The notes beneath the pieces were generated by a model that was not told the DNA's origin, did no database searches, and saw only the letters and a program-made list of their open reading frames with translations. A DNA stretch of 40,359 bases from NCBI GenBank assembly GCA_023245995.1, contig JAHFJH010000008.1:1-40359 (forward strand), in the 5' to 3' direction. This DNA is from Candidatus Doudnabacteria bacterium. GTDB taxonomy: Bacteria > Patescibacteriota > Doudnabacteria > UBA920. The translations under genes were made by a program, and so were the position numbers. Below are positions 1-23,878 of this stretch, piece after piece; positions within the stretch are counted from its first letter, which is position 1; each line of letters begins with the position of its first letter.

Positions 1-1572
1 AGTGCGGAGCTTAAATTGGAAATTAAAGCAGGCTTGGTTGGAAAGTTTGCAAACGCAGTAAGATTAATTGCAGTAGAGCCAAGCGATTCAAGTCTTGTTA
101 ACAATCAAATTGAGTCCGACTTAGAGGTTACAGGTGCAGCAGATACTACACTTACCTGTGTACCAAACGAAGAAACAGTCTTTGTAAATCAGAGCGCTGT
201 TTATGCGGTTATTGGTGGTACAGGAACTTATGAGTGGTCTGCTCCTAGTGGTAGTCAAGTATCCGGTATGGGCCCAAATTTTGCGACAACATATAGTGAG
301 ACAGGAGTGCATGTAATTACTGTAACTTCTGGAACGCAAAAGACTAGTTGTAGCGTTAGCGTGGAAGAAGCTCCGAAGGTTGTGCCAGTTTTCGACCTAG
401 CTATAACAGAGCAGGTAAGTCCTGCTGTGGTAGTAGTTGGACAGACTGCTTTGTTTACAGTAACGCTAAAAAACAGAACACAAGTGGTTGCTAGTAACGT
501 GCTGGTATCGGCTTTAATGCCAAGCAGTTTTAAGCTTGAAAAATATGCAGTTTCAGTTGGGGATTATGTGCCTGCTACAGGAGTGTGGAATGTTGGTACT
601 ATACCTGCAGGACAAACGGTTACGGCAACTTTTAATGTAACAAGTCAAAATGCACGTACGGTAACCGCGCAGGCTGTATTGGGTGGCTCAGTTCCGGAAG
701 ACACAGATAACAGCAACAATGTCGCATCCGCTACTCTATATACAAATACAACGACTGCACTTCAGGGTCCTCTTGCATGTGTACTTTCTACAAATAGTGC
801 GAATGTAGGACAGGTGGTTACTGCCTACGCTGTTGGCGGGAACATTGCCACGCGGACTTGGAGTGCCCCAGATGGTAGTAGTACGAGTGGCGGAGGATCT
901 AACTTTTCTACACTTTTTTCTTCTGCTGGTAAACATGTAATAACTCTTACATCGGAACAAGAAAGCGCGGAGTGTACGGTAGACGTAAAGCCTTTACCTG
1001 TAGGTACTTCTAGTGCGAATTTGTCATTGGTCCAAAGTATTACTCCCACAAGTATTTCTCTGGATGGCAAGGCGGTAATTGTTTTGACTATTACCAACGC
1101 TGGTCCAGATGTCGCGAATTTGGTTAGTGTCAAAGAAAATTTGCCTAGTGGCTTGAGTATGGTTAACCTACAGGCTGGTCAGGGAACGTATGATAAAACG
1201 AACGGTCTGTGGAACGTAGGGAGTGTTGGTCCTACTCAACATATTACTTTGTTAATAACTGTGAAAGCCATTCGTGCTGGTAAGTATACAAGTAGTGCAG
1301 AAATATTTACAAGTGGTAGCAAGGACCCCAACTCAACACCAAACAATGGACTTGCCTCTGAGGACGACGCAGCTTCTGCTGCTATAACGGTAACGGGCGA
1401 GAATGCAAATACTACTTTGCCTATAACACCCATTGCAATTTTTGCCGGGCTTTGCATATTAGCTTTACTTGCAGCTCTTAGAGTAAAGACTAAGCGCGAT
1501 GTGCGCTTGCACACGCCTGGAGGACATACACAAGTAGATTTTGGCGCGCCAGTAAATACACCCAGTTCGTAG
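1..1572 (+). CDS. Surface protein with DUF11-like/Ig-like repeats and C-terminal TM anchor (5' partial; frame open to window edge)
   Basis: Frame open from base 1 (SAELKLEIKAG...); repeated 'NVGTIPAGQTVTATFNVTSQN'/'NVGSVGPTQHITLLITVKA' DUF11-type motifs; C-terminal hydrophobic segment LPITPIAIFAGLCILALLAAL followed by basic residues. Confidence 0.8.
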   Translation, partial: SAELKLEIKAGLVGKFANAVRLIAVEPSDSSLVNNQIESDLEVTGAADTTLTCVPNEETVFVNQSAVYAVIGGTGTYEWSAPSGSQVSGMGPNFATTYSETGVHVITVTSGTQKTSCSVSVEEAPKVVPVFDLAITEQVSPAVVVVGQTALFTVTLKNRTQVVASNVLVSALMPSSFKLEKYAVSVGDYVPATGVWNVGTIPAGQTVTATFNVTSQNARTVTAQAVLGGSVPEDTDNSNNVASATLYTNTTTALQGPLACVLSTNSANVGQVVTAYAVGGNIATRTWSAPDGSSTSGGGSNFSTLFSSAGKHVITLTSEQESAECTVDVKPLPVGTSSANLSLVQSITPTSISLDGKAVIVLTITNAGPDVANLVSVKENLPSGLSMVNLQAGQGTYDKTNGLWNVGSVGPTQHITLLITVKAIRAGKYTSSAEIFTSGSKDPNSTPNNGLASEDDAASAAITVTGENANTTLPITPIAIFAGLCILALLAALRVKTKRDVRLHTPGGHTQVDFGAPVNTPSS

Positions 1573-4832: not shown

Positions 4833-5879
4833 TTATTGTGGGTATATATAACCAACCACGCTGTCGGCTTCTATTGTTCTATAGCTTTTTACTCCCAGCC
4901 CTTCGTAGTTCATTTCAGAAATGTATATAGTACCTTTGGCAGGGTTAACCGACTCTACAAATGCCACATGTCCGTACCTACCGGCTCGTGAGGTTACAAC
5001 GGCACTTCCTGCAAGCGGTGCTTGCCCAGTTTTGTAGCCGGCTCTTTGGGCGTTTGCAAACCAGTCTTTGGCGTTGCCGTGGAATGTTATTTTCATTTTT
5101 CTTGCTACGTACCAAGTGCAGTTGCCACGAACAAATGTGCTACTGCCTGCTACATCTGGAATGGAAGAATAATTTATACCAACGGTTCGAGCTTTTGCAA
5201 TTGCTTTTGGCGGTGTTGCTACCGAACCACCTGGGCACATAATGTATTGACCCGGCTCTACGCTATCCGCTCCATCTAGTCCGTTATAAGAGATAATTTG
5301 TTCTTCAGAGCATTTAAATTTTCTTGCAATACCAGCAATTGTTGTGTCGTTGTCTGCCAAAACGAGCACGCCCTTAACTGATGGAATAACTAAATACCAT
5401 CCAGGTTTAATGGTGTCGGAAGTCAGGTTGTTTGACCATTTAATAGTGTTAATGTCTATGTCAAACTGTTTAGAAATGGAGCCAAGCGTGTCGCCGCCTT
5501 GTGTTTCGTAAATTTTAATCTGGTTATCTAAAAGTGGTTTTATGCTGTCGGGTATGCTTGTGGCCAAGCCGTCTTCGTCTATGGTGTTAAGCGGACTTTG
5601 AGTTAAGCTAGTACCTGCTACCTGCGTGGAACTGTTTGGCACTATTTGTTCGTTGGCTCTGGCTTTGGTAATTAGTCCATTTGAGTCTGTGACAGTCAGA
5701 GTAGTGCTAAACAATTTGCTGTAGAGAGCGGGGTTGGCGCTTGGTTGTTTGTAGAGGGTTGCAGCTGCCAAACTTTCATCTTGTTTTAGTATGCCTTGGT
5801 GGCCCATACTAATGTTGGCTAGAATAACAACTAAAGCGAGTGTAATAAGTGCAGCCTCGTCGGCAAATTTCATAGCCAT
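4833..5879 (-). CDS. LysM-LysM-CHAP peptidoglycan hydrolase, membrane-anchored
   Basis: TM near N-terminus; two LysM-like segments ('YETQGGDTLGSISKQFDIDINTIKWSNNL', 'DNDTTIAGIARKFKCSEEQIISYNGL'); CHAP motif 'GNCTWYVARKM...GHVAFVESV...ISEMNY'. True N-terminus uncertain (see findings). Confidence 0.85.
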   Translation of the reverse strand: MAMKFADEAALITLALVVILANISMGHQGILKQDESLAAATLYKQPSANPALYSKLFSTTLTVTDSNGLITKARANEQIVPNSSTQVAGTSLTQSPLNTIDEDGLATSIPDSIKPLLDNQIKIYETQGGDTLGSISKQFDIDINTIKWSNNLTSDTIKPGWYLVIPSVKGVLVLADNDTTIAGIARKFKCSEEQIISYNGLDGADSVEPGQYIMCPGGSVATPPKAIAKARTVGINYSSIPDVAGSSTFVRGNCTWYVARKMKITFHGNAKDWFANAQRAGYKTGQAPLAGSAVVTSRAGRYGHVAFVESVNPAKGTIYISEMNYEGLGVKSYRTIEADSVVGYIYPQ

Positions 5880-9835: not shown

Positions 9836-10429
9836 ATGTTAAAACAAAAGAGGCTACAAAAAATTATTGTTTTTATGATTGGGGTTTCCCTCTTGGCTGT
9901 TGGCTGTTCAAAAAAGAAAGAGCAGGCGCCCGTGACATCTACGACAAAGATTGGGGAAAATGGTTCTAAGGTGGTTGTATCTACAAATATCCCAAGCGGT
10001 TGGGTGAATTTTGTTTCTGGAGATAATGTGAATTTTGATATCGCCATGCCTAAAACATGGGTAGTGGATGACGTTAGTCAGGAAAACCACTTTATTATCC
10101 GTTCCAGTGCCGGTGCTACTGGTGCTAAGGCTGGCGACTCTTTGATGATATTTAATGTAAATAAGTTAAGCGCTAAGTCTTTGGCAGAGCAGGTAGTGGC
10201 TGACACCAAGGACGGGAAGAATGTAAGTACAGCTACTTATGGTAAAACAAATACTGGTCTTGAATATGCCTTTGTTCGCTATACAGATACCGCGAGTACG
10301 GTAAAGTCTTGGTCGGCATATGCTGTTGCAACAGGGCTTGGAAGTTATGTGTCTATTAAAACAGCTACAAATGGTGGGGACGAGGTCGCTTCGCAGATTG
10401 TGAAAACTGTAAGAGTGTGGAAGCGTTAA
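9836..10429 (+). CDS. Putative lipoprotein
   Basis: Lipobox-like signal peptide IVFMIGVSLLAVGCSKKK; extracytoplasmic beta-rich domain. Confidence 0.7.
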   Translation: MLKQKRLQKIIVFMIGVSLLAVGCSKKKEQAPVTSTTKIGENGSKVVVSTNIPSGWVNFVSGDNVNFDIAMPKTWVVDDVSQENHFIIRSSAGATGAKAGDSLMIFNVNKLSAKSLAEQVVADTKDGKNVSTATYGKTNTGLEYAFVRYTDTASTVKSWSAYAVATGLGSYVSIKTATNGGDEVASQIVKTVRVWKR

Positions 10430-10449: not shown

Positions 10450-12435
10450 ATGCTTATGAAACAAAAACTATATTTTTCCGTTGGCGCTTCCGTAGGTATT
10501 TTAGGGCTGTTTATTGCCAGCGTGTTTGTATATACAGCGCCTAATGTATATGCCGAAGATTGTTTTGGCAGTCCTACGGCTTGCGCTACACCACCCACAG
10601 TAAATAATTTTGTCTCCCAGTGTCCAGATGGACAAGTTAACTCTGGCAACTCTGGTAGAGGAGCAAACGCTACACCAAACTGTACACCTTGCCCACCAAA
10701 TACAGTTAAGACGCTCATTTATGGTTCTGAGGCATGTCTTCCACCTGGGTACGTACCTGTGTATAGTTTTGACCCAAACATATTTCAAATCGGACAAAGT
10801 GGTGAAATTTGTCGTAAAGACGGACAACACTTTACCGGTGCCATTGGAAACAGACTACCTACCCGTAAGTACGACTGCTGTGGTATAGGTGTAAGACAAA
10901 ATAGAACTGCAGGAAATAGCTTTGACTATGTGTGTGAAAATGGTGGCGCTCCAGGTACTATTCCAGTTCCGACTGCTTTGGGCGGAAGTGGCTCTGGAGG
11001 CTCCGGAAGCGGCGGTGGAGGTAGTGGTTCTGGTGGCGGCGGAAATAACGGCGGGTTTGTTTCCCAGTGTCCAGACGGACAAGTTAACTCTGGTAACTCT
11101 GGTAGAGGCGCAAACGCCACACCAAACTGTACACCTTGTCCACCAAACACAGTAAAAACTCTTATCTATGGTTCTGAGGCATGTCTTCCACCTGGATATA
11201 CGCCAAATTACAGTTTTAACACAGAAGTATTTCAAATTGGTCAAAGTGGTGAAATTTGTCGCAAAGACGGTCAGCATTTTACTGCAGCCATTGGGGACAG
11301 GTTTCCCACTCGTAAGTATGATTGTTGTGGTTTAGGCATAAGACAAAATAGAACTGCAGGAAACAGTTACGATTATGTATGTGAAAATGGAGGTAGTGGT
11401 GGTGTAATACCTACTCCAATATCAGGTGGAGGTGGCGGAAGCGGCGGTGGAGGTAGTGGTTCTGGTGGTGGTGGAAATAATGGTGGGTTTGTCTCCCAGT
11501 GTCCAGATGGACAAGTTAACTCTGGCAACTCTGGTAGAGGCGCAAACGCTACACCAAACTGTACACCTTGCCCACCAAATACAGTTAAGACGCTCATTTA
11601 TGGTGGTGAGTCATGTCAGGTGCCTGGCTATGTTCCAACATATAGTTTTAATACAGACGTCTTCCAAATCGGACAAAGTGGTGAAATTTGCCGCAAAGAC
11701 GGTCAGCATTTTACTGCAGCCATTGGAAACAGACTGCCTACCCGTAAGTACGACTGCTGTGGTATAGGTGTAAGACAAAATAGAACTGCAGGAAATAGCT
11801 TTGACTATGTGTGTGAAAATGGTGGACCTCCCGGCACTGTTGGTAATTTAGGCGCAGGCGCAGGCGCTGGTAGTGGATATTTAGCTTCATGTATAGGCGG
11901 GGGTAAAGCAGATAAAAATGATCCAGGTATTGGGGTAGAGGTGAAGGCTGATGGAACCATTAGCGCGAGCGTTGAACTTTCCGGCATTACTGGTGCTGTA
12001 ATAAAAATAGATGGCAAAGTTGCAACAGGGAAAAACTTTGCTCTCTCAGCTGGGCAAGTACTAACAGTAACTGTTGGGACAAATACTTACACAGCCGACA
12101 CGGATGGGCTAAAACCGGGTGAGTCTATGTCTGTCCTTATTCCTATGCCGTGCATTAAGGTAAACCCTCAAACAGAAGAGCAGGCTCAAATGGATGAGCC
12201 GGAATTGGAAGCATTCATTAACGGCGATGGTATTGTGAAATCTGGTATTGCTGCTGGAACTTTCCAAATATGGTACATGGTAAAAGGGGATAAGACTAAC
12301 ATTAAGTGGAAACCGTATACTTCTGTATTTACAGTTCAGGGTAAGGGAGTAATTTCCGCAAAAACAAAGTTTGGCGACGATGAAAGCTTGGTAACTTCTA
12401 CAAGTTTTGACGCCACCCCTCCCAAAAAGGAATAA
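10450..12435 (+). CDS. Secreted cysteine-rich tandem-repeat protein (3 x 113 aa) with Gly/Ser linkers and unique C-terminal domain
   Basis: Signal-peptide-like N-terminus (MKQKLYFSVGASVGILGLFIASVFVYTAPNVYA); three near-identical repeats FVSQCPDGQ...YVCENGG separated by GSGGGGSGSGGGGNNGG-type linkers. Confidence 0.88.
   Translation: MLMKQKLYFSVGASVGILGLFIASVFVYTAPNVYAEDCFGSPTACATPPTVNNFVSQCPDGQVNSGNSGRGANATPNCTPCPPNTVKTLIYGSEACLPPGYVPVYSFDPNIFQIGQSGEICRKDGQHFTGAIGNRLPTRKYDCCGIGVRQNRTAGNSFDYVCENGGAPGTIPVPTALGGSGSGGSGSGGGGSGSGGGGNNGGFVSQCPDGQVNSGNSGRGANATPNCTPCPPNTVKTLIYGSEACLPPGYTPNYSFNTEVFQIGQSGEICRKDGQHFTAAIGDRFPTRKYDCCGLGIRQNRTAGNSYDYVCENGGSGGVIPTPISGGGGGSGGGGSGSGGGGNNGGFVSQCPDGQVNSGNSGRGANATPNCTPCPPNTVKTLIYGGESCQVPGYVPTYSFNTDVFQIGQSGEICRKDGQHFTAAIGNRLPTRKYDCCGIGVRQNRTAGNSFDYVCENGGPPGTVGNLGAGAGAGSGYLASCIGGGKADKNDPGIGVEVKADGTISASVELSGITGAVIKIDGKVATGKNFALSAGQVLTVTVGTNTYTADTDGLKPGESMSVLIPMPCIKVNPQTEEQAQMDEPELEAFINGDGIVKSGIAAGTFQIWYMVKGDKTNIKWKPYTSVFTVQGKGVISAKTKFGDDESLVTSTSFDATPPKKE
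10609..10947 (+). repeat. Coding tandem repeat unit 1 (339 nt / 113 aa, 8 Cys)
   Basis: FVSQCPDGQVNSGNSG...DYVCENGG; near-identical to units at 11056 and 11488. Confidence 0.93.
11056..11394 (+). repeat. Coding tandem repeat unit 2 (339 nt / 113 aa, 8 Cys)
   Basis: Alignable to units 1 and 3 without gaps. Confidence 0.93.
11488..11826 (+). repeat. Coding tandem repeat unit 3 (339 nt / 113 aa, 8 Cys)
   Basis: Alignable to units 1 and 2 without gaps. Confidence 0.93.
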
Positions 12436-12452: not shown

Positions 12453-12489
12453 AAAAAGTCGCCCCTCACTCTAGTGAGAGGCGACTTTT
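12453..12489 (+). terminator. Rho-independent terminator after Cys-rich repeat gene
   Basis: aaaaagtcgcccctcactctagtgagaggcgactttt. Confidence 0.85.
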
Positions 12490-12662
12490 ATGTTTGCGAA
12501 CCTTATTTTTTAGTTGTGTATATTTGCGCGTCTACAAATATATAAGCTAGCTATTTTAGAGGGCAACTTTACTTGTAGCCTTTTGGCGACTTGTGTTGTA
12601 ATGAAGTGGTCTTGATGTTATACTAAAACTAAAGTATTAGAGTGTATTTTAAGAAACAAAAT

Positions 12663-14870
12663 ATGAAAATTGCTAATCAACAAAAATTAATTATTGGAGT
12701 TGCTGGTTTGGCAGTGTTTGTGTTGTTAGTAACTACTGTGTGGAGTCGGCCGGGATTTTTATACCGACCAACGTCACCGGAGAAGCAAGCTGAATTGCAG
12801 AAATCGCAGGCAGACAGTTTAAAGGAGTATAGGGATTATTTGGCCAGTGTTCATACAGACCCAATTGCTAGTAGTTTAATTTTTGCCAAAGTTTTTGATA
12901 CTAAAGCCATAGCCCAAGATATACGTGAACAAATAGGTGCAGACAAGCCCGCAGTTATTCCAAAAGTTAATTTAACAGATCTTAAAGTGAATAACACGGC
13001 CGACCCGGCAGTTATAAAGGATTATGTAAGCAAACTACAAGACAGGCTTGCACAGTACCACGGTGAAGTATTGCCCACCTTAGATAACGTACTTACGGAT
13101 TTTCCAGATGTAGTATTAGCCTCGAATGCCGATAACTCCGCTAAGTCTTTACTTACTGACTTATACAGCCAAAGCGTGCCAAAACCAGCCATTCCTTTGC
13201 ATAGCGCTATTATTAGTGCTTATACAACCAGTGAGCAAATGTTTGCCGACGCAAAGCATGCGGCCTCTTTAGATGCGCCGACCGGACAGTGGAAACATTC
13301 AAATCTAGCCTATGTAACAACTCGCACACAGGTGGATTCTATGAACGATATTGTAAAACAGCTAGAACAGGCATACGCGTTTAACGCAGGAGATACAAGC
13401 GAAGGCGGCGAGTCTAACGTCTTTATCCCCATAGCAAAAGCTGTTCCAGTAAGCGTTATATATAGCATACCGCAAACAGTTTCTAATTTTTTGCGTTCTG
13501 CGCTTGGGGTTGCGATTATAAACGCAACTAGGCAAATGTTGACGAAATATATAACCAACACAGAAAAGAACTATTTAGTTTCTAACTATTTATACTACAC
13601 AAATGCTTTAGTGAACTCTAAATACGCTAACGACTACTTAAATAAAAATATTCCAGACGCAAAAGATCGTGAACAAATAAAAAAGTTTTTACCTGAGTTT
13701 AGTTGTGGTATTCAAAACGAAGCTGAATTACAAAAGCAAATGAGTGCCAAGGCTATAGAGTTTTTAGGTTTCGATCCAAAATACTTAGACCCAGCCGATC
13801 CTGACTTTTATAAAAAAGTGGTAAAAACAGTGGACCCAAAGGCAGACACAACTGGAGATGGTTACCGCAAGTTTTATGAATCTTTAGCTACTGTTGCCAG
13901 TGCATCAGCTAATGGTGCTGCGTTTACAGAGGAAATTGGTCCTACTAAAAAAGTAGCTCAGACCGCGGATTTAAAAAACATTAAAGTTTCGCTAGATAAC
14001 ATTTCCGGCCAGCAGAGAGCTGCCAGCAACGCACTCTTTAACATACCGGTGGCTAACGCTACTACGGGGAGTTTTGGGTTTGATAAGTTTATGACCAACC
14101 AAGTGCTGGGCATACTTAAACAGTTTTTAATTAAGGAAGCGGTGGTTATAAAAGAACAGCAAACTTGCGTAAAAGTACCGGTTGTAAATCCTATTATTCC
14201 AGGAGATTTTACACCAAACAAAATACAGCCGACCGAGGCAGAAGTGCAAGCCTGTACTGACGACCCAACGGGCGAGGAATGTGCAAGAATATATTTCCAG
14301 ACTCCATATGACTCTGGTGGAAATTCGCTACTTACCGACTGTCCGGTGCTACAAAATGTTTCAAACAATGGTCGCATACTTTCGGACGGTTTATACTTAA
14401 ATGTGTCTCCGGCTAGGACAAAAGTTGGAGTCGATATACAGCTGGACTACGGGTTGCAGCCTGCATGTGCTCAAAAGATTGCTGAAAACTTAAAAGCAGG
14501 TTCAACCTTGCAGTTGGGTGTGTATGGCGGAGACTTCTATCCAACTAGTTGTGTGCTTCCAACCGACCCAGAAGACCCTACAAAACAAATTGTAGTAGTA
14601 CAACCATTCTCAACCCAGTTGGAAGGTTCTGTAGTTCTCGACTCAAGGCTTATTGCAACCAGACTGGACAGAAATGGTGTAGAGGTAGTAAAACCCGGAA
14701 GACAAGTGGTAACTGCACTTATAACTGGCGTAGATGATGACGGACATCCTTTGTGTATTAGTGGTACAGTTGAACTACAACTTGACGCACCGAATATTCG
14801 CTCAGAGCTTCCAGCTTCGAGTCCGTTTGCCTTACGACCTTTGGGAAAATTTGCACTGGCTTGGCGGTAA
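12663..14870 (+). CDS. Large anchored extracytoplasmic protein of unknown function (secretion-locus orphan); GTG alternative start at 12642
   Basis: Long ORF; N-terminal TM LIIGVAGLAVFVLLVTTVW; extended -10 TGTTATACT at 12616-12624 supports the downstream ATG. Confidence 0.75.
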   Translation: MKIANQQKLIIGVAGLAVFVLLVTTVWSRPGFLYRPTSPEKQAELQKSQADSLKEYRDYLASVHTDPIASSLIFAKVFDTKAIAQDIREQIGADKPAVIPKVNLTDLKVNNTADPAVIKDYVSKLQDRLAQYHGEVLPTLDNVLTDFPDVVLASNADNSAKSLLTDLYSQSVPKPAIPLHSAIISAYTTSEQMFADAKHAASLDAPTGQWKHSNLAYVTTRTQVDSMNDIVKQLEQAYAFNAGDTSEGGESNVFIPIAKAVPVSVIYSIPQTVSNFLRSALGVAIINATRQMLTKYITNTEKNYLVSNYLYYTNALVNSKYANDYLNKNIPDAKDREQIKKFLPEFSCGIQNEAELQKQMSAKAIEFLGFDPKYLDPADPDFYKKVVKTVDPKADTTGDGYRKFYESLATVASASANGAAFTEEIGPTKKVAQTADLKNIKVSLDNISGQQRAASNALFNIPVANATTGSFGFDKFMTNQVLGILKQFLIKEAVVIKEQQTCVKVPVVNPIIPGDFTPNKIQPTEAEVQACTDDPTGEECARIYFQTPYDSGGNSLLTDCPVLQNVSNNGRILSDGLYLNVSPARTKVGVDIQLDYGLQPACAQKIAENLKAGSTLQLGVYGGDFYPTSCVLPTDPEDPTKQIVVVQPFSTQLEGSVVLDSRLIATRLDRNGVEVVKPGRQVVTALITGVDDDGHPLCISGTVELQLDAPNIRSELPASSPFALRPLGKFALAWR

Positions 14871-14905: not shown

Positions 14906-17900
14906 ATGGTGAATTTTTATAGACATAAGCATTTTACTAAATATCTAAAAGTACTTATTTTAGGTATTATTGCTAGTGCTTTTCTGTTTGCTCCGCTAAC
15001 TGTTAGCGCTGCCGTGCCCATTACGCCAAGGGAACCAGTTGCAGCTACTGGTAGAGTCTTGCAAGCGTCTACATGCGACACTGTACATGGCTTGGATGTT
15101 AGTATTTCCCCAGCAACTGCGGCGATTGGCCAAAAGGTTACCTTAACAGCACAGGTAAAGTCTTTTTGTAGGTCTGCAGTCGCGAGCAACGCTGTATTTG
15201 TATTGGACATATTTAACGGACCAATTTCTGCTGCTAATACGTCTATTGCGACTATTCGCGGAAGCGGTTACCAAGCCACAAGCGAAATACTTATAGCTCC
15301 TGCAGCGTATAGCGTTGGAGACCATTTGCTTGCCGCTCGGATGGTTTATAAAGATACAGACAACAATATGTACGGCGACGCAACTTTTCAAGTTACTGCC
15401 GCAAGTACTACGGGTGCTGCAACCTTAAGCGTAACCAGAGATGCCAATCCCAGCGTGAGCGCTATAAGCGGTACAGTGACAATGACTTTTCACGCACTTT
15501 ATAGTAAGGGCGGGTCAAATATAGAAGCAACGGCCATACAGTACACTTGTGCAGTTGGAGAAGTAGACGCGCGAACAGCCGACGGGTCTCTTGCCGACAT
15601 AGAATGTAATTATGACAAAACAGCGAGAAGCCATACCGTTACCATGCAAGCTATGCAAAGCGTTAACGGTGCTTTAGTTGCTATTCCTGGTGCAACTTGG
15701 ACAACAAATATCCAAATTACCGGCCACGAAAGTGACGATAGTATTTTAAACACAGTTGTTGGAGCGGGAAAAGCAGCATGGTCTGCGCTTGGGTGCATTA
15801 GTTGGCTTGTGGGTGGTCCAGAATGCACAATCAGCCTCATGATTTCAACCATTTCCGACGTTTTTGGCTCTGTGCTTAAAGTTGGTAGTTTATTGTTGGC
15901 TGTTTTTATGGAAAGAATTTTATCCATACAAACATTTACTCCAAAATTTGCGCAAGTAACTTTTGCAGGTTGGGTAATTTTCCGAAATCTTGGAAATATA
16001 TTTTTCATTTTAGCTATCGTGGCTATAGGTGTTGCTACGGTATTTCGTATATCTGGCTGGGCGGTAAAAGACCTATTGGTAAAACTTATAATTGGGGCAA
16101 TACTCATTAACTTTAGTTTAACGATTGCGCAGGCAATTTTGGGCATTGCTGACACTGTGCAACATCAATTTTTACCGGGGGCGTCGGGTGTGGTGCGTGA
16201 AATTATTAATCCGTTTTTTTCTTCAAGTATTTGGCAGTCTATAACAGTAGATGGCGATTTTGGTACCTACCAAGCGGCAGCGAAATCCATTGTAAACTTT
16301 TGGTTTATGTTTGCCGCGTTTATTGCCATTTTGGGCATAACTTTTTTACTTGTGGTAAGGCTTGTAATGTTGTGGTTGTTGCTTATGTTTTCGCCTTTGG
16401 CCTATGTGGCTATGGTGTTACCGTTTACTCGCAAGTATTCGCACATGTGGTGGAGCAAGTTTTTGCAGTGGGCTTTTGTCACTCCTATAGTTGCTTTTAT
16501 GCTTAATTTAACAGCGCTTGTTACAAGAGAAAACTCTAAGGTTTTTGATAATTTAACAACTCTTGACCCAAGCTTGCAAAATAGTTCACTAGAAAGCACG
16601 GTGTCCGCCATGGCTGTACGACTAGTTCCTTTGGTTTTTATGTACATGACTATAAAAGTTGCTTCTTCATTTGGTAAGGGTGCTTCGGGTTTTGTTGATA
16701 AAACATTGGAAAAAGGCCTTGGGGCTACATTCTTGCCAGCAGCAGCTACTGGCGCGCTAGCTTTAAGTGCTACAAAATACGGCGCTACTCGTTTAAACCA
16801 GTTTAAGCAAGAAAAAACTTTGGCAGCAGCTGAAAAGGGTGGTATTGGGGCTAAAGCTGCACATCTAATTTTAAGTCCTATTAGTACCGGCAAGGGAATA
16901 AAAGCTGCGTTTGACGCTAGTGCCGCGGACAGAAAACGGCGAGGCGAGCACGCACAAGATATGTCTGCTGAAATTCTTTCCAAGTCACCGCTTGGTGCCT
17001 TACTTGGGCATAAGTCGCTAATAGGCGCAGTTGAAGCTCGTAAAGCAAAAGAAGCAAAAGAGCTTATGGACAAAATGGTTGGATACAGCCAACCGCAAAG
17101 CTTGCAAGGTTTTGAAGCAGCAGTTAAGGATAAAAATAGCACTGCAGCAGAAGTAGAAATTATGCGTCATGTTCAAAATAGAGATCTTGGTACTATGCTT
17201 GCAGCAGAAGGTTTGGGTAATACATTGGCAGGAAAAATAGAGTTCCTAGATAGACGGGTGGCCGACGGTACCTTTACCGAAGAAACAGCAGCGCGTTTGT
17301 CTGGACAAATAGACTCTGAAGCAAAAAAACAAGGCGACTTACATTATATGGGTGGAACTCGTGTTGAGGGCGATAAACTTGTACGCATAACCAGCGCCGA
17401 CATCGCTACTGCAGGTTCTGCTGGTGCAGATGAATTCGCAAAACAACAAGCTAAGTATGCAGAAAGACTTACAGACATGGGTGCGGGTGCGAGAGCCAGA
17501 GATGCCAGTTTTGGTATGGTTATGAGAGAAGACGGTGCAGTGCCTGTAACGGATGTTGACAGGTTCCAGTACCAGCAAGAGTATATAGAACGAATAGCTA
17601 ACCTTAGCGATGCAGATGTAAATGCGGCAGACTCAGTAAACGACAAGCGCAAGCGTCAAGAGTTGAAAGCACTGTTTGACCCAGTGGTTGGTGAACTGCG
17701 AAGGCAAAAGGCAGTTGATGCTATTGCCGTGGAACTTGCAGCAGAAGCTGCAAAAGAAGGTGTAACTTTAACTGCGGCTGCGGCTGGTGCTGAAGCACAA
17801 GACAAGTTTAATAAATATTTGCGTAAGTATTTGCAGGTTACGACTTCTGGTCAGGCTATTAATAAGAAATCAAGGGATTTGTTTACAACGCTTTCTCGCG

Positions 17901-18364
17901 AAAATGCCAATTTTGGTTCTTCCTTAAAAGGCATTGGGAGTGCAGACAGACGTCGTGTAGAAGATTATGTAAACAATTTAGGTACTTCACCGGAAGACTA
18001 TACGTACAATATGCGTTCAGATATCAACACAATATTCACCTCAATCTCTCCGGCTCAGGCCGCAGCAGCGCAAGCAGAGTTGCAAGCAACAGTGGCTAAG
18101 TCTGTTGCAAGTCGCTTTAGTCCCGTGGCTTTTGGTATTACATCTCCTGTAACCCATACTCAGCTAGATACCATTCGCAATGGAGTTGCTACAGCCATAC
18201 AACGCATTGTCGCACTTCCAGCAAATGCAGGCGTGCCCTTAAAGAATTTACAACCCGCCTTGCAACGCGCGGTTGATGCAGAGCTAAATTCTATGCCTCC
18301 TGCGGCAACAGGTTTAAGTGCAGCTGAAGTTGCGGCAGTCGCAGCAAAAATTTCTAAAGTTTAA
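14906..18364 (+). CDS. VirB6/TrbL-like multi-TM protein with N-terminal extracellular and long C-terminal helical domain
   Basis: Signal peptide, then clustered TMs (AGWVIFRNLGNIFFILAIVAIGVATVFRI, LLVKLIIGAILINFSLTIAQAIL, FAAFIAILGITFLLVVRLVMLWLLLMFSPLAYVAMVLPF); neighbours PrgI and VirB4. Confidence 0.75.
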   Translation: MVNFYRHKHFTKYLKVLILGIIASAFLFAPLTVSAAVPITPREPVAATGRVLQASTCDTVHGLDVSISPATAAIGQKVTLTAQVKSFCRSAVASNAVFVLDIFNGPISAANTSIATIRGSGYQATSEILIAPAAYSVGDHLLAARMVYKDTDNNMYGDATFQVTAASTTGAATLSVTRDANPSVSAISGTVTMTFHALYSKGGSNIEATAIQYTCAVGEVDARTADGSLADIECNYDKTARSHTVTMQAMQSVNGALVAIPGATWTTNIQITGHESDDSILNTVVGAGKAAWSALGCISWLVGGPECTISLMISTISDVFGSVLKVGSLLLAVFMERILSIQTFTPKFAQVTFAGWVIFRNLGNIFFILAIVAIGVATVFRISGWAVKDLLVKLIIGAILINFSLTIAQAILGIADTVQHQFLPGASGVVREIINPFFSSSIWQSITVDGDFGTYQAAAKSIVNFWFMFAAFIAILGITFLLVVRLVMLWLLLMFSPLAYVAMVLPFTRKYSHMWWSKFLQWAFVTPIVAFMLNLTALVTRENSKVFDNLTTLDPSLQNSSLESTVSAMAVRLVPLVFMYMTIKVASSFGKGASGFVDKTLEKGLGATFLPAAATGALALSATKYGATRLNQFKQEKTLAAAEKGGIGAKAAHLILSPISTGKGIKAAFDASAADRKRRGEHAQDMSAEILSKSPLGALLGHKSLIGAVEARKAKEAKELMDKMVGYSQPQSLQGFEAAVKDKNSTAAEVEIMRHVQNRDLGTMLAAEGLGNTLAGKIEFLDRRVADGTFTEETAARLSGQIDSEAKKQGDLHYMGGTRVEGDKLVRITSADIATAGSAGADEFAKQQAKYAERLTDMGAGARARDASFGMVMREDGAVPVTDVDRFQYQQEYIERIANLSDADVNAADSVNDKRKRQELKALFDPVVGELRRQKAVDAIAVELAAEAAKEGVTLTAAAAGAEAQDKFNKYLRKYLQVTTSGQAINKKSRDLFTTLSRENANFGSSLKGIGSADRRRVEDYVNNLGTSPEDYTYNMRSDINTIFTSISPAQAAAAQAELQATVAKSVASRFSPVAFGITSPVTHTQLDTIRNGVATAIQRIVALPANAGVPLKNLQPALQRAVDAELNSMPPAATGLSAAEVAAVAAKISKV

Positions 18365-20750: not shown

Positions 20751-21203
20751 ATGCAGTTTCCGGTGCCACAATTTACCGAAGTAGAAGACAAAATAATTGG
20801 CCCCTTAACTGTAAGGCAGTTTTTTATATTGCTTGTTACAGCAGGGATTATATTTTTTTCATATTCTTTGAGTAAAGATTATTACGTTACGGGGGCTGCA
20901 GGCTTTTTGGTTGGAGTGCCTGGTTTGCTTTTAACTTTTGGTCAGTTTAATGGCCGTCCCATGTATTCTTCCATTATTGTGTTTTTGAACTTTCTGACAA
21001 AACCCAGATTTTTTGTTTTTCATAAAGAAGCGGAAAATAAAAAGACATTAGAGGTTAAAGATTTGAAGCAACAACCTGTTGCAAAGCCAACAGAACCTGG
21101 GGATGACACTCGTAGTAAGCTTAAAAAGGTGGCATACCAGTTGCAGTTGCGCGAGGAGCAGGAGAAGGAGTTGTTGTCCACTAAGCAAAAAATAACAAAA
21201 TAA
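20751..21203 (+). CDS. PrgI family protein (VirB3-like T4SS membrane component)
   Basis: FPVPQFTEVEDKIIGPLTVRQFFILLVTAGIIFF... typical PrgI start plus two hydrophobic segments; precedes VirB4. Confidence 0.85.
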   Translation: MQFPVPQFTEVEDKIIGPLTVRQFFILLVTAGIIFFSYSLSKDYYVTGAAGFLVGVPGLLLTFGQFNGRPMYSSIIVFLNFLTKPRFFVFHKEAENKKTLEVKDLKQQPVAKPTEPGDDTRSKLKKVAYQLQLREEQEKELLSTKQKITK

Positions 21204-21304: not shown

Positions 21305-22015
21305 ATGGCTTTAGAAATGCAAAAACCAAATCAAGCTAAGGGTGTGTCTACACATTCAACTTTACGGATTTCTGAAATTCGTGACGACATTGTTATCATG
21401 CAAGACGGTACTCTTAGAGCTATTTTAGCCGTATCTTCTACCAACTTCGACCTAAAAAGTGAGGAAGAACAGAATGGCATAGTTTACGGATATCAAAGAT
21501 TTCTTAACTCTTTGGACTTTCCACTACAGATACTAATGCAGAGTCGGACTCTGGATATTGCTGACTACGTGAGCCGGCTGAAGATTACAACAACACGGTT
21601 AACCAATGAGTTGCTTAAAATGCAAGCTAACTACTATATAGATTTTATTTCTCAGTTAGTGACTGATGCGAATGTTATGAGTAAAAGTTTTTATATAATT
21701 ATTCCGCTGTCGCAGAATGTTACACCTCAAGCCAGTGGTTTCTTTTCTAAACTTTTTGGCGGAGGTGGAGTTGCAAAACAAACAAATCAACGCTTGGAAA
21801 ACCTGCGTCATTATGGTGAGCAGTTACAGCAACGCGTAGACTCTATTGTTAGCAATTTGTCCGGTATGGGTTTAAAAGTGGTTAGGTTAGACACAGGTGC
21901 TTTAATAGAGTTGTATTATAATTCGTATAATTACGAGTCTGCTCCGGCTTTAGATAGCGCGAGTCTTAAAGATATAAAAGTAATTACTACACCGGAGACG
22001 CCTAAGGTGGCATAA
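21305..22015 (+). CDS. TraC/VirB4 N-terminal-domain-like protein (no ATPase domain)
   Basis: 'LRISEIRDDIVIMQDGTLRAILAVSSTNFDLKSEEEQNGIVYGYQRFLNSLDFPLQILMQSRTLDI' resembles the TraC-like N-domain; ends 6 bp before the VirB4 ATPase ORF. Confidence 0.8.
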   Translation: MALEMQKPNQAKGVSTHSTLRISEIRDDIVIMQDGTLRAILAVSSTNFDLKSEEEQNGIVYGYQRFLNSLDFPLQILMQSRTLDIADYVSRLKITTTRLTNELLKMQANYYIDFISQLVTDANVMSKSFYIIIPLSQNVTPQASGFFSKLFGGGGVAKQTNQRLENLRHYGEQLQQRVDSIVSNLSGMGLKVVRLDTGALIELYYNSYNYESAPALDSASLKDIKVITTPETPKVA

Positions 22016-22021
22016 AATTTT

Positions 22022-23878
22022 ATGAGTATTTTTTCTTCAAAAACTCCAGAGCAAATTCAGGCGGAAAAGATAAAGTTGCAAGCTGCCAAGACAAATACTG
22101 AGGTAAACCGTCAGGTGGTTGAGCTTGAGAAAATTTATCAAGAAGGTCTAACTTCTTTAAAGGACTTAATTTCCCCCGCAGCTGTTAAATATGAGAGTTC
22201 GTATTTTGTTCTAAATGGAAAGTACGGTAGAAGTTTCTTTGTTTTAGCTTATCCTCGGTTTCTTTCTTCTAACTGGCTCTCTTTTATTATAAATTCCGAA
22301 GGACAGTTGGACGTGTCAATGTTTATTTACCCAATCGACTCGGCTACTATTTTAAAGAAATTAAAATCTAAGGTTGGTGAAATTGGGTCACAGCTTGCTA
22401 TAAACCAAGAGAAGGGCGTTGTTCGCGATCCTATGTTAGAAACAGCCTATGGCGATGTGGAAGGCCTGCGCGACGCACTTTTACAAGGTACAGAAAAGTA
22501 TTTTAGGTTTGCTCTATACTTCACCATATACGCAGACAATGTAAAAGATTTGGATGAGCAATCGACCATACTTGAAAGCACGCTTGGGGCTAAGCTGGTT
22601 GTTACAAAAAGGGCTCTTATGCAAACAGAGCAAGGGTTCGTGTCTACTTTGCCTTACGGATTAGATGAAATGAACATAGGCAACAACTTAAACACCAGCC
22701 CGCTCTCTACGACTTTCCCTTTTGTTTCTCCAGATTTAACCAGTAACGATGGTATTTTATATGGTATAAATCGACACAACAACAGCCTTATATTGTTTGA
22801 CCGGTTTAAAATGGAAAATGCTAACTTTGTTGTGTTTGCAAAATCCGGTGCTGGTAAGTCGTATGCTATAAAATTGGAGATACTACGTAGCCTTATGATT
22901 GGCACTGAGGTTATGGTTATAGACCCTGAGAATGAATATCAGCATTTGGCCGAAGCTGTGGGCGGTAGTTTTGTTAGCATTTCGTTAAACTCGCAGTCGC
23001 GCATAAACCCATTCGACTTGCCGAGAGGTCTTGAAGGAGAAAGTCAAGAAGACGTTATGCGCAGTGCCATAATATTTTTACTTGGATTAATGAACTTAAT
23101 GCTTGGTAAATTAGATCCAACCGAAGAAGCATTAATGGATAAAGCGATATGGCAAACTTACGCAAAAAAAGATATTAGTCCTACAAGCAATCTTACAAAT
23201 GCCGAATTTCCAACCATGGGGGACTTGGTGGAGGTGCTATCTGGAATGGTGGGCGCAGAAAATTTGGCACAACGTTTGTCTAAATACACTCAAGGTACGT
23301 TTGCTGGTATTTTTGATCAACAAAGCAATGTAGGTCTTGTAAATTCCCTAGTAGTTTTTTCTATACGAGATTTAGAAGACATACTGCGACCTATAGCAAT
23401 GTTCGTTCTGGTAAACCATGTGTGGAACTTGGTGCGAAGCGAACTTAAACGTCGTATATTAGTACTAGATGAAGCTTGGGTTATGATGCAACATGAAGAC
23501 AGCGCAAGGTTTATATTTGGTATTGCTAAGCGTTGTCGCAAATACTATCTTGGTCTTACTACCATTACGCAAGACGTGGCCGACTTTATGGCCTCTCCTT
23601 ACGGCAAGCCAATTGTTACCAACTCATCTATACAAATGTTGTTAAAACAAAGCCCAGCGTCAATTGCTATAGTTGCTGAAACATTTTTCTTAACTGAAGG
23701 AGAAAAGTATTTGTTGCTTGAAAGTGAGGTTGGTGAAGGAATATTTTTTGCGGGTAGCAAACATGCTGCTATTAAGGTGTATGCGTCTTATATAGAAGAC
23801 CAAATAATTACCACCGATCCTAAACAATTGTTGGAAATTAAGGAACAACAAAAGACTCAAGCAGCGCAAGGAAAGTAA
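22022..23878 (+). CDS. VirB4-family type IV secretion ATPase
   Basis: Walker A FAKSGAGKSYAIKLE; VIDPENEYQHLAEAVGG; Walker B RILVLDEAWVMM; LTTITQDVADFM. Confidence 0.9.
   Translation: MSIFSSKTPEQIQAEKIKLQAAKTNTEVNRQVVELEKIYQEGLTSLKDLISPAAVKYESSYFVLNGKYGRSFFVLAYPRFLSSNWLSFIINSEGQLDVSMFIYPIDSATILKKLKSKVGEIGSQLAINQEKGVVRDPMLETAYGDVEGLRDALLQGTEKYFRFALYFTIYADNVKDLDEQSTILESTLGAKLVVTKRALMQTEQGFVSTLPYGLDEMNIGNNLNTSPLSTTFPFVSPDLTSNDGILYGINRHNNSLILFDRFKMENANFVVFAKSGAGKSYAIKLEILRSLMIGTEVMVIDPENEYQHLAEAVGGSFVSISLNSQSRINPFDLPRGLEGESQEDVMRSAIIFLLGLMNLMLGKLDPTEEALMDKAIWQTYAKKDISPTSNLTNAEFPTMGDLVEVLSGMVGAENLAQRLSKYTQGTFAGIFDQQSNVGLVNSLVVFSIRDLEDILRPIAMFVLVNHVWNLVRSELKRRILVLDEAWVMMQHEDSARFIFGIAKRCRKYYLGLTTITQDVADFMASPYGKPIVTNSSIQMLLKQSPASIAIVAETFFLTEGEKYLLLESEVGEGIFFAGSKHAAIKVYASYIEDQIITTDPKQLLEIKEQQKTQAAQGK

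What the first reader, a model, noticed from the sequence alone, without database searches (positions are those of the whole stretch)
10450..12435. Secreted protein built from three 113-aa, eight-cysteine repeats on Gly/Ser linkers: candidate undescribed extracellular domain family
Seen directly: signal peptide, then three gap-free 339-nt repeats (FVSQCPDGQ...NCTPCPP...EACLPPGY...GEICRKDGQHF...KYDCCG...YVCENGG), each with 8 Cys. They are separated by flexible GGSGSGGGGSGSGGGGNNGG-like linkers and followed by a beta-rich unique C-terminus. I do not recognise the repeat. Inference: disulfide-stabilised beads on a string displayed next to a T4SS-like machine, possibly an adhesin, pilus or host-contact protein.
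Basis: partly seen in the sequence, partly recalled or inferred. Interest (0 to 1): 0.72.

Follow-up and report, generated by a model that had tools for sequence, protein, structure and literature searches.

The report
Modular cysteine-rich secreted repeat protein
A tiny, probably host-dependent bacterium (Candidatus Doudnabacteria) makes a secreted protein of three near-identical cysteine-rich beads on flexible linkers, whose modules are reshuffled between related species; it is probably a surface binding protein, encoded beside but transcribed separately from a type IV secretion locus.

Summary
ORF 10450-12435 (+, 661 aa) has a signal peptide, three gap-free 113-aa repeats (89-91% identical, eight Cys each), Gly/Ser linkers and a unique C-terminal domain (CTD). 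All 28 cysteines fall in even sets (2+24+2). Synonymous sites between copies are far diverged while protein sequence is held (dN/dS 0.07-0.18), so the repeat is a selected domain. It is not one indivisible domain: each repeat is two 4-Cys modules, A and B, and B also occurs alone in relatives. A, B and the CTD were found only in the three held genomes of this genus (relatives are Ca. Doudnabacteria MAGs); nothing passes a Pfam, NCBIfam or PDB threshold. Module A has a consistent but non-significant TNF-receptor/ephrin-like resemblance. The type IV secretion link is positional: two of three genomes carry the A/B protein in the rsmA-VirB6 slot, the third has it elsewhere (the slot holds a different protein sharing only the CTD), and a strong terminator separates the gene from the secretion genes. 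The constant neighbour is a lipoprotein gene. Best reading: a multivalent, domain-shuffled surface binding protein, a new family of the cysteine-rich extracellular attachment proteins already proposed for this bacterial group. Function is inferred.

The parts
10450..12435 (+). 661-aa secreted modular protein, whole ORF
   Evidence: single copy in own genome
10450..10554 (+). Sec signal peptide, likely cleavage after NVYA (residue 35)
   Evidence: sequence shows directly; hydropathy maximum 2.2 at residues 9-27; no signal-peptide predictor was available
10561..10584 (+). Post-signal two-Cys mini-loop CFGSPTAC, conserved in the G001 homologue as CFGSVTAC
10609..10947 (+). Repeat 1: module A (4 Cys, 10609-10776) + module B (4 Cys, 10777-10947)
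10948..11055 (+). Gly/Ser-rich linker 1
11056..11394 (+). Repeat 2: module A (11056-11223) + module B (11224-11394)
11395..11487 (+). Gly/Ser-rich linker 2
11488..11826 (+). Repeat 3: module A (11488-11655) + module B (11656-11826); gene-conversion mosaic with repeat 1
11827..11871 (+). Pro/Gly/Ala-rich linker 3
   Evidence: sequence shows directly
11872..12432 (+). C-terminal domain, two Cys, found elsewhere only in the G002 slot protein (about 30% identity, E about 1e-18)
12454..12489 (+). Strong intrinsic-terminator hairpin just after the gene, -22.9 kcal/mol, z = -6.1
   Evidence: the simple consensus scan did not list it because of a mismatch in the stem
9836..10429 (+). Lipoprotein gene (lipobox LLAVGC), 20 bp upstream; its homologue immediately precedes the A/B gene in all three genus genomes
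12642..14870 (+). Secretion-associated membrane-anchored protein, conserved through the family
   Evidence: role unknown
14906..18364 (+). VirB6/TrbL-like protein
   Evidence: sub-threshold TrbL; 19 of 22 family genomes
20751..21203 (+). PrgI (VirB3-like)
   Evidence: above the Pfam cut-off
22022..23878 (+). VirB4-like ATPase, CD1110 family
   Evidence: 349.5 bits vs cut-off 325

Best explanation
A Sec-exported, surface-displayed or released multivalent binding protein. After export, a membrane-anchored DsbA-like oxidoreductase pairs the cysteines. Each 113-aa bead (module A + module B) is a small rigid ligand-binding unit, flexible Gly/Ser linkers let the three beads bind at the same time (avidity), and the C-terminal domain holds the protein at the cell surface or at a partner. 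The neighbouring lipoprotein, probably transcribed with it, is the likeliest tether. Between related species the beads, linkers and C-terminal domain are exchanged, as expected if the target surface (host cell or matrix) changes. Shown: anatomy, purifying selection, module shuffling, a terminator between it and the secretion genes, presence of a DsbA-like protein. Inferred: disulfide pairing, surface location, binding function, ligand, tethering.
For: Signal peptide and 28 Cys in even sets. Conserved extracytoplasmic oxidoreductase with FQCPYC motif, two Thioredoxin_4 proteins per genus genome. dN/dS 0.07-0.18 between beads with dS up to 0.95, and mosaic copies 1/3 indicating gene conversion that keeps beads alike. 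Domain shuffling: window = (AB)x3 + CTD; G001 = (AB)x2 + B + other C-terminus; G002 unlinked = AB + B + GW beta module; G002 slot = GW x2 + same CTD. Linker sequence is not conserved (Gly/Ser vs Pro/Thr), so linkers act as spacers. Lipoprotein gene precedes the A/B gene in 3 of 3 genomes. Precedent: Peribacteria encode large, cysteine-rich extracellular proteins thought to act in attachment (PMC4736985).
Against: No homologue of known function, no carbohydrate- or adhesin-domain match, no LPXTG motif or second transmembrane anchor seen, so even surface retention is unproven. No VKOR partner for the oxidoreductase was found. Bead structure prediction is only moderate (pLDDT 72.7, pTM 0.51). Only three genomes carry the family.
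Confidence: 0.5

Rival explanations
1. It is a working part of the type IV secretion machine at the host interface: a PrgB-like or VirB5-like tip/contact protein specific to this genus.
For: Sits in the slot between rsmA and the secretion genes in the window and in G001 (contig ends overlap 225 bp at 95.6%). In G002 the same slot holds a secreted protein sharing the CTD. Most other genera of the family examined have a secreted protein in this slot as well. No PrgB-like adhesin has been found in Patescibacteria although monoderm systems rely on such adhesins (PMC12102498).
Against: Strong terminators follow the window gene and the G002 slot gene. The G002 A/B protein lies away from the secretion genes. 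The slot proteins of other genera are not detectably homologous to the CTD.
Confidence: 0.22
2. It is a released Cys-rich effector, inhibitor or toxin acting on host or competitors.
For: Small disulfide-rich beads and no obvious cell anchor; rapid module turnover between relatives.
Against: No immunity gene recognised, no toxin or inhibitor family match above threshold; three nearly identical beads on long Gly/Ser linkers fit avidity better than catalysis.
Confidence: 0.15
3. It is a structural envelope or matrix protein (S-layer-like or biofilm matrix) with no specific ligand.
For: Repetitive, disulfide-rigid and flexible segments; large secreted DUF11/PKD proteins also flank this locus.
Against: No S-layer homology domain matched; single copy; a differing module complement in each relative is unusual for an essential envelope component.
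Confidence: 0.13

Closest known systems
Large cysteine-rich extracellular proteins of Peribacteria (Patescibacteria), PMC4736985
   Same: CPR bacteria, signal peptide, high Cys content, proposed attachment role, variation among strains
   Different: [quoted passage not shown] no sequence comparison with the A/B modules was made here
TNF-receptor / ephrin-receptor-like (GCC2/GCC3) / NCD3G cysteine-rich domains
   Same: Module A has the CPxG...C-x2-CPxxT...C pattern; sub-threshold Pfam scores (20.8 vs cut-off 23.1 bits in G001); most top Foldseek hits are TNF receptors in PDB, as are the top three in BFVD
   Different: No score passes a threshold (Foldseek E >= 0.16, TM-score about 0.3 or less); chance frames in the same genomes score up to 17.8 bits with the same Pfam model; module B has no counterpart
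PrgB-type adhesins of Gram-positive conjugation systems
   Same: Secreted surface protein encoded near a VirB4/PrgI-type locus; would play the contact role
   Different: No sequence similarity found; separated by a terminator; linkage not constant

Membership tests
TNF-receptor / Ephrin_rec_like (PF07699) cysteine-rich domain | Profile match above the curated cut-off | tested here: not met
   Best 20.8 bits vs 23.1; 3 of 6 module-A members match, best E 0.014; genome-wide chance level up to 17.8 bits
TNF-receptor / Ephrin_rec_like (PF07699) cysteine-rich domain | Same fold | tested here: inconclusive
   Top PDB and BFVD Foldseek hits are mostly TNF receptors, none significant; model pTM 0.51
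NCD3G (PF07562) | Nine-Cys domain of family 3 GPCR, score above cut-off | tested here: not met
   13.7-14.2 bits vs 38.9
EGF-like / TIL domains | Profile match | tested here: not met
   No EGF or TIL model among matches up to E = 1 for the whole protein, or E = 10 for the modules
PrgB-type conjugation adhesin | Sequence match to a PrgB model or related solved structure | tested here: not met
   None in Pfam, NCBIfam or PDB sequences
PrgB-type conjugation adhesin | Transcribed with and serving the secretion system | tested here: inconclusive
   Adjacent in 2 of 3 genomes but behind a terminator in the window
Cys-rich extracellular attachment proteins of CPR bacteria (PMC4736985) | Secreted, unusually Cys-rich, in a CPR genome | tested here: met
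   Signal peptide, 4.2% Cys, relatives are Ca. Doudnabacteria MAGs
Cys-rich extracellular attachment proteins of CPR bacteria (PMC4736985) | Attachment function | not testable with these tools
   Needs binding or imaging experiments; not shown for the published proteins either

The most novel reading that the evidence does not exclude
The slot between rsmA and the type IV secretion genes is a diversity site for fast-changing host-contact proteins of Patescibacteria. In this genus it is filled by shuffled Cys-rich (A/B) and GW-beta beads, in two of the three genomes on a common C-terminal docking domain, supplying the adhesin missing from descriptions of the Patescibacteria secretion system.
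Probability: 0.2. Interest if true: 0.7.

Novelty: new member of a known kind. Interest (0 to 1): 0.37.

Why it matters
How Patescibacteria recognise and hold their hosts is largely open. A published survey found no PrgB-like adhesin for their type IV secretion system (PMC12102498), while Cys-rich extracellular proteins have been suspected as attachment factors (PMC4736985). This finding gives a concrete, expressible candidate with two undescribed small disulfide modules and a C-terminal domain, and shows that such proteins evolve by module exchange at a fixed locus.

Tried and rejected
A single indivisible 8-Cys domain: rejected, because module B occurs without A in G001 and G002. Recent tandem duplication or assembly artefact: unlikely, dS up to 0.95 between copies. 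Homology of the CTD with the small secreted proteins in the same slot of other genera: not supported, hhalign probability 0.1%. Membership in the TNF-receptor/ephrin-like family: not claimed, since chance frames score nearly as high. PDB hits of the full protein are Gly/Ser linkers of engineered antibodies and MHC chimeras, i.e. composition. PHROGs hits (E 2.5e-4 and 3e-3) have no stretch passing on its own and unknown function. Full-length AlphaFold model without alignment is useless (pLDDT 34.7). No match in phage or plasmid records. The viral-contig scan gave no answer twice. A shuffled-module control for the Pfam score was prepared but not run.

Full report
OBSERVATION. ORF 10450-12435 (+) encodes 661 aa. 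Three repeats of 113 aa at 10609-10947, 11056-11394 and 11488-11826 align without gaps at 89-91% identity to the first, all eight Cys invariant, and TRF finds the same array. The protein has 28 Cys: two in a post-signal loop (CFGSPTAC), 24 in the repeats, two in the C-terminal domain (CTD). At 4.2 per 100 residues it stands far above the rest of the window. Copies differ by dS 0.95 (1-2), 0.31 (1-3) and 0.81 (2-3) with dN 0.05-0.06 (dN/dS 0.07-0.18). Copies 1 and 3 are nearly identical at codons 1-38 and 77-113 but differ strongly at 39-57, the pattern of partial gene conversion. The repeat is thus old, kept by selection and homogenised.

WHERE IT LIVES. The window is a 40-kb contig of a 0.95-Mb, 96%-complete genome holding one copy of the gene. 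The named relatives found by scanning 85,462 species genomes are two Candidatus Doudnabacteria MAGs (JAEUSE010000009.1 and JAHFJI010000039.1), and nothing else was confirmed. That scan used one short peptide pattern, so distant relatives could be missed.

TWO MODULES, RESHUFFLED. Homologues in the two other genomes of the genus (G001 and G002) show that a repeat is two parts. Module A (56 aa) has the order C...C-x2-C-P...C; module B (57 aa) has C-x2/3-DG...CC...C. G001 reads A-B, A-B, B and then a different Cys-containing C-terminus, with Pro/Thr instead of Gly/Ser linkers. An unlinked G002 protein reads A-B, B and then a 'GW' beta module. The G002 protein in the secretion slot lacks A/B, has two GW modules, and ends in the same CTD as the window protein (about 30% identity, E about 1e-18). 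Profiles of A and B in 50 genomes of the order and of the CTD in 382 genomes of the phylum give strong hits only in this genus; the weak others (E above 1e-4) look like chance. Because B occurs alone, the simplest inference is that each module closes its own two disulfides.

KNOWN DOMAINS. No Pfam or NCBIfam model passes its cut-off and no meaningful PDB sequence match exists. Weak hints for module A agree with one another: Ephrin_rec_like at 20.8 bits vs cut-off 23.1 in G001, NCD3G sub-threshold, decoy receptor 3 as best PDB profile hit at E 0.21, and TNF receptors filling most top Foldseek places in PDB and the top three in BFVD. None is significant. The same Pfam model scores up to 17.8 bits on chance frames in related genomes, and the bead model is only moderate (pLDDT 72.7, pTM 0.51, all beta). 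This is a lead on fold type, not membership.

DISULFIDE CAPACITY. All three genomes encode two Thioredoxin_4 (DsbA-like) proteins. The window genome's C45 copy is membrane-anchored with an FQCPYC motif. No VKOR was found. A thiol-disulfide oxidoreductase family is enriched in CPR bacteria (PMC6744442).

THE TYPE IV SECRETION LINK. Downstream lie a membrane-anchored protein conserved in the family, a VirB6-like protein, PrgI and a VirB4 ATPase. Gene order uvrD-rsmA-...-slot-VirB6 is kept through the family. In G001 the A/B gene is in the slot: its contig end overlaps the secretion contig by 225 bp at 95.6% identity. In G002 the slot holds the CTD protein and the A/B protein is elsewhere, next to sigma-factor genes. 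In other genera the slot mostly holds a small two-Cys secreted protein, not detectably related to the CTD and not found in this genus (this empty answer has no positive control). A terminator hairpin of -22.9 kcal/mol, z = -6.1, follows the window gene by about 20 nt, and similar hairpins follow both G002 genes; none was seen after the G001 gene, which is followed by a second lipoprotein gene. The lipoprotein gene lies 20 bp upstream in the window and its homologue precedes the A/B gene in all three genomes. So the gene sits at the secretion locus but looks like a separate lipoprotein + repeat-protein unit.

MECHANISM. Most likely the protein is exported by Sec, oxidised outside the membrane, and displayed as three rigid beads on flexible linkers that bind a surface ligand by avidity, with the CTD and/or the lipoprotein holding it at the cell. 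The export signal (by sequence), selection, shuffling and the predicted terminator are shown; disulfides, display, ligand and tethering are inferred. A role as contact protein of the secretion machine is a serious rival, since most genera examined have a secreted protein in that slot and no PrgB-like adhesin has been found in Patescibacteria (PMC12102498). Tn-seq in a cultured Saccharibacterium implicates adhesins and the type IV secretion system in epibiotic growth (PMC10633639).

VERDICT. Observation confirmed; interpretation partly supported. The A, B and CTD families appear undescribed, but the kind of protein, a Cys-rich extracellular candidate attachment protein of a CPR bacterium, was already proposed in Peribacteria (PMC4736985).

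Noticed in passing
L069:7164-7523, L070:5880-6296, L075:6007-6342, L077:6459-6917, L078:7921-8316, L079:8853-9218: Family of small secreted two-Cys proteins (PFGG... / GGRFLPG... motif) in the rsmA-VirB6 slot of other genera; possible secretion-system-associated surface protein without annotation.
   Followed up: partly
L075:5015-6004: A 329-aa secreted protein with 12 Cys in the same slot in genome G011, unrelated by eye to modules A/B.
   Followed up: no
window 12642-14870: Looks like a fusion of the ~250-aa membrane gene and ~630-aa gene that are separate in other genera, with an extra C-terminal part; a relative sits near dnaX and a coupling-protein-like gene elsewhere in the family.
   Followed up: partly
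window 21305-22015 and 22022-23878: VirB4 appears split: a TrsD/TraC-N-terminus-like gene followed by the VirB4 ATPase gene.
   Followed up: no
window 4833-5879 (-): LysM-CHAP cell-wall hydrolase next to uvrD, kept in synteny across the family; a candidate VirB1-like enzyme for the secretion locus.
   Followed up: no
L028:338-2372 and L009:1801-3489: An unannotated 'GW' beta module of about 115 aa is shared by two secreted G002 proteins (twice in the first, once in the second); no Pfam match.
   Followed up: partly
L028:11471-14408 and window 16-1572: Large DUF11/PKD-repeat secreted proteins at the start of the same syntenic block.
   Followed up: no
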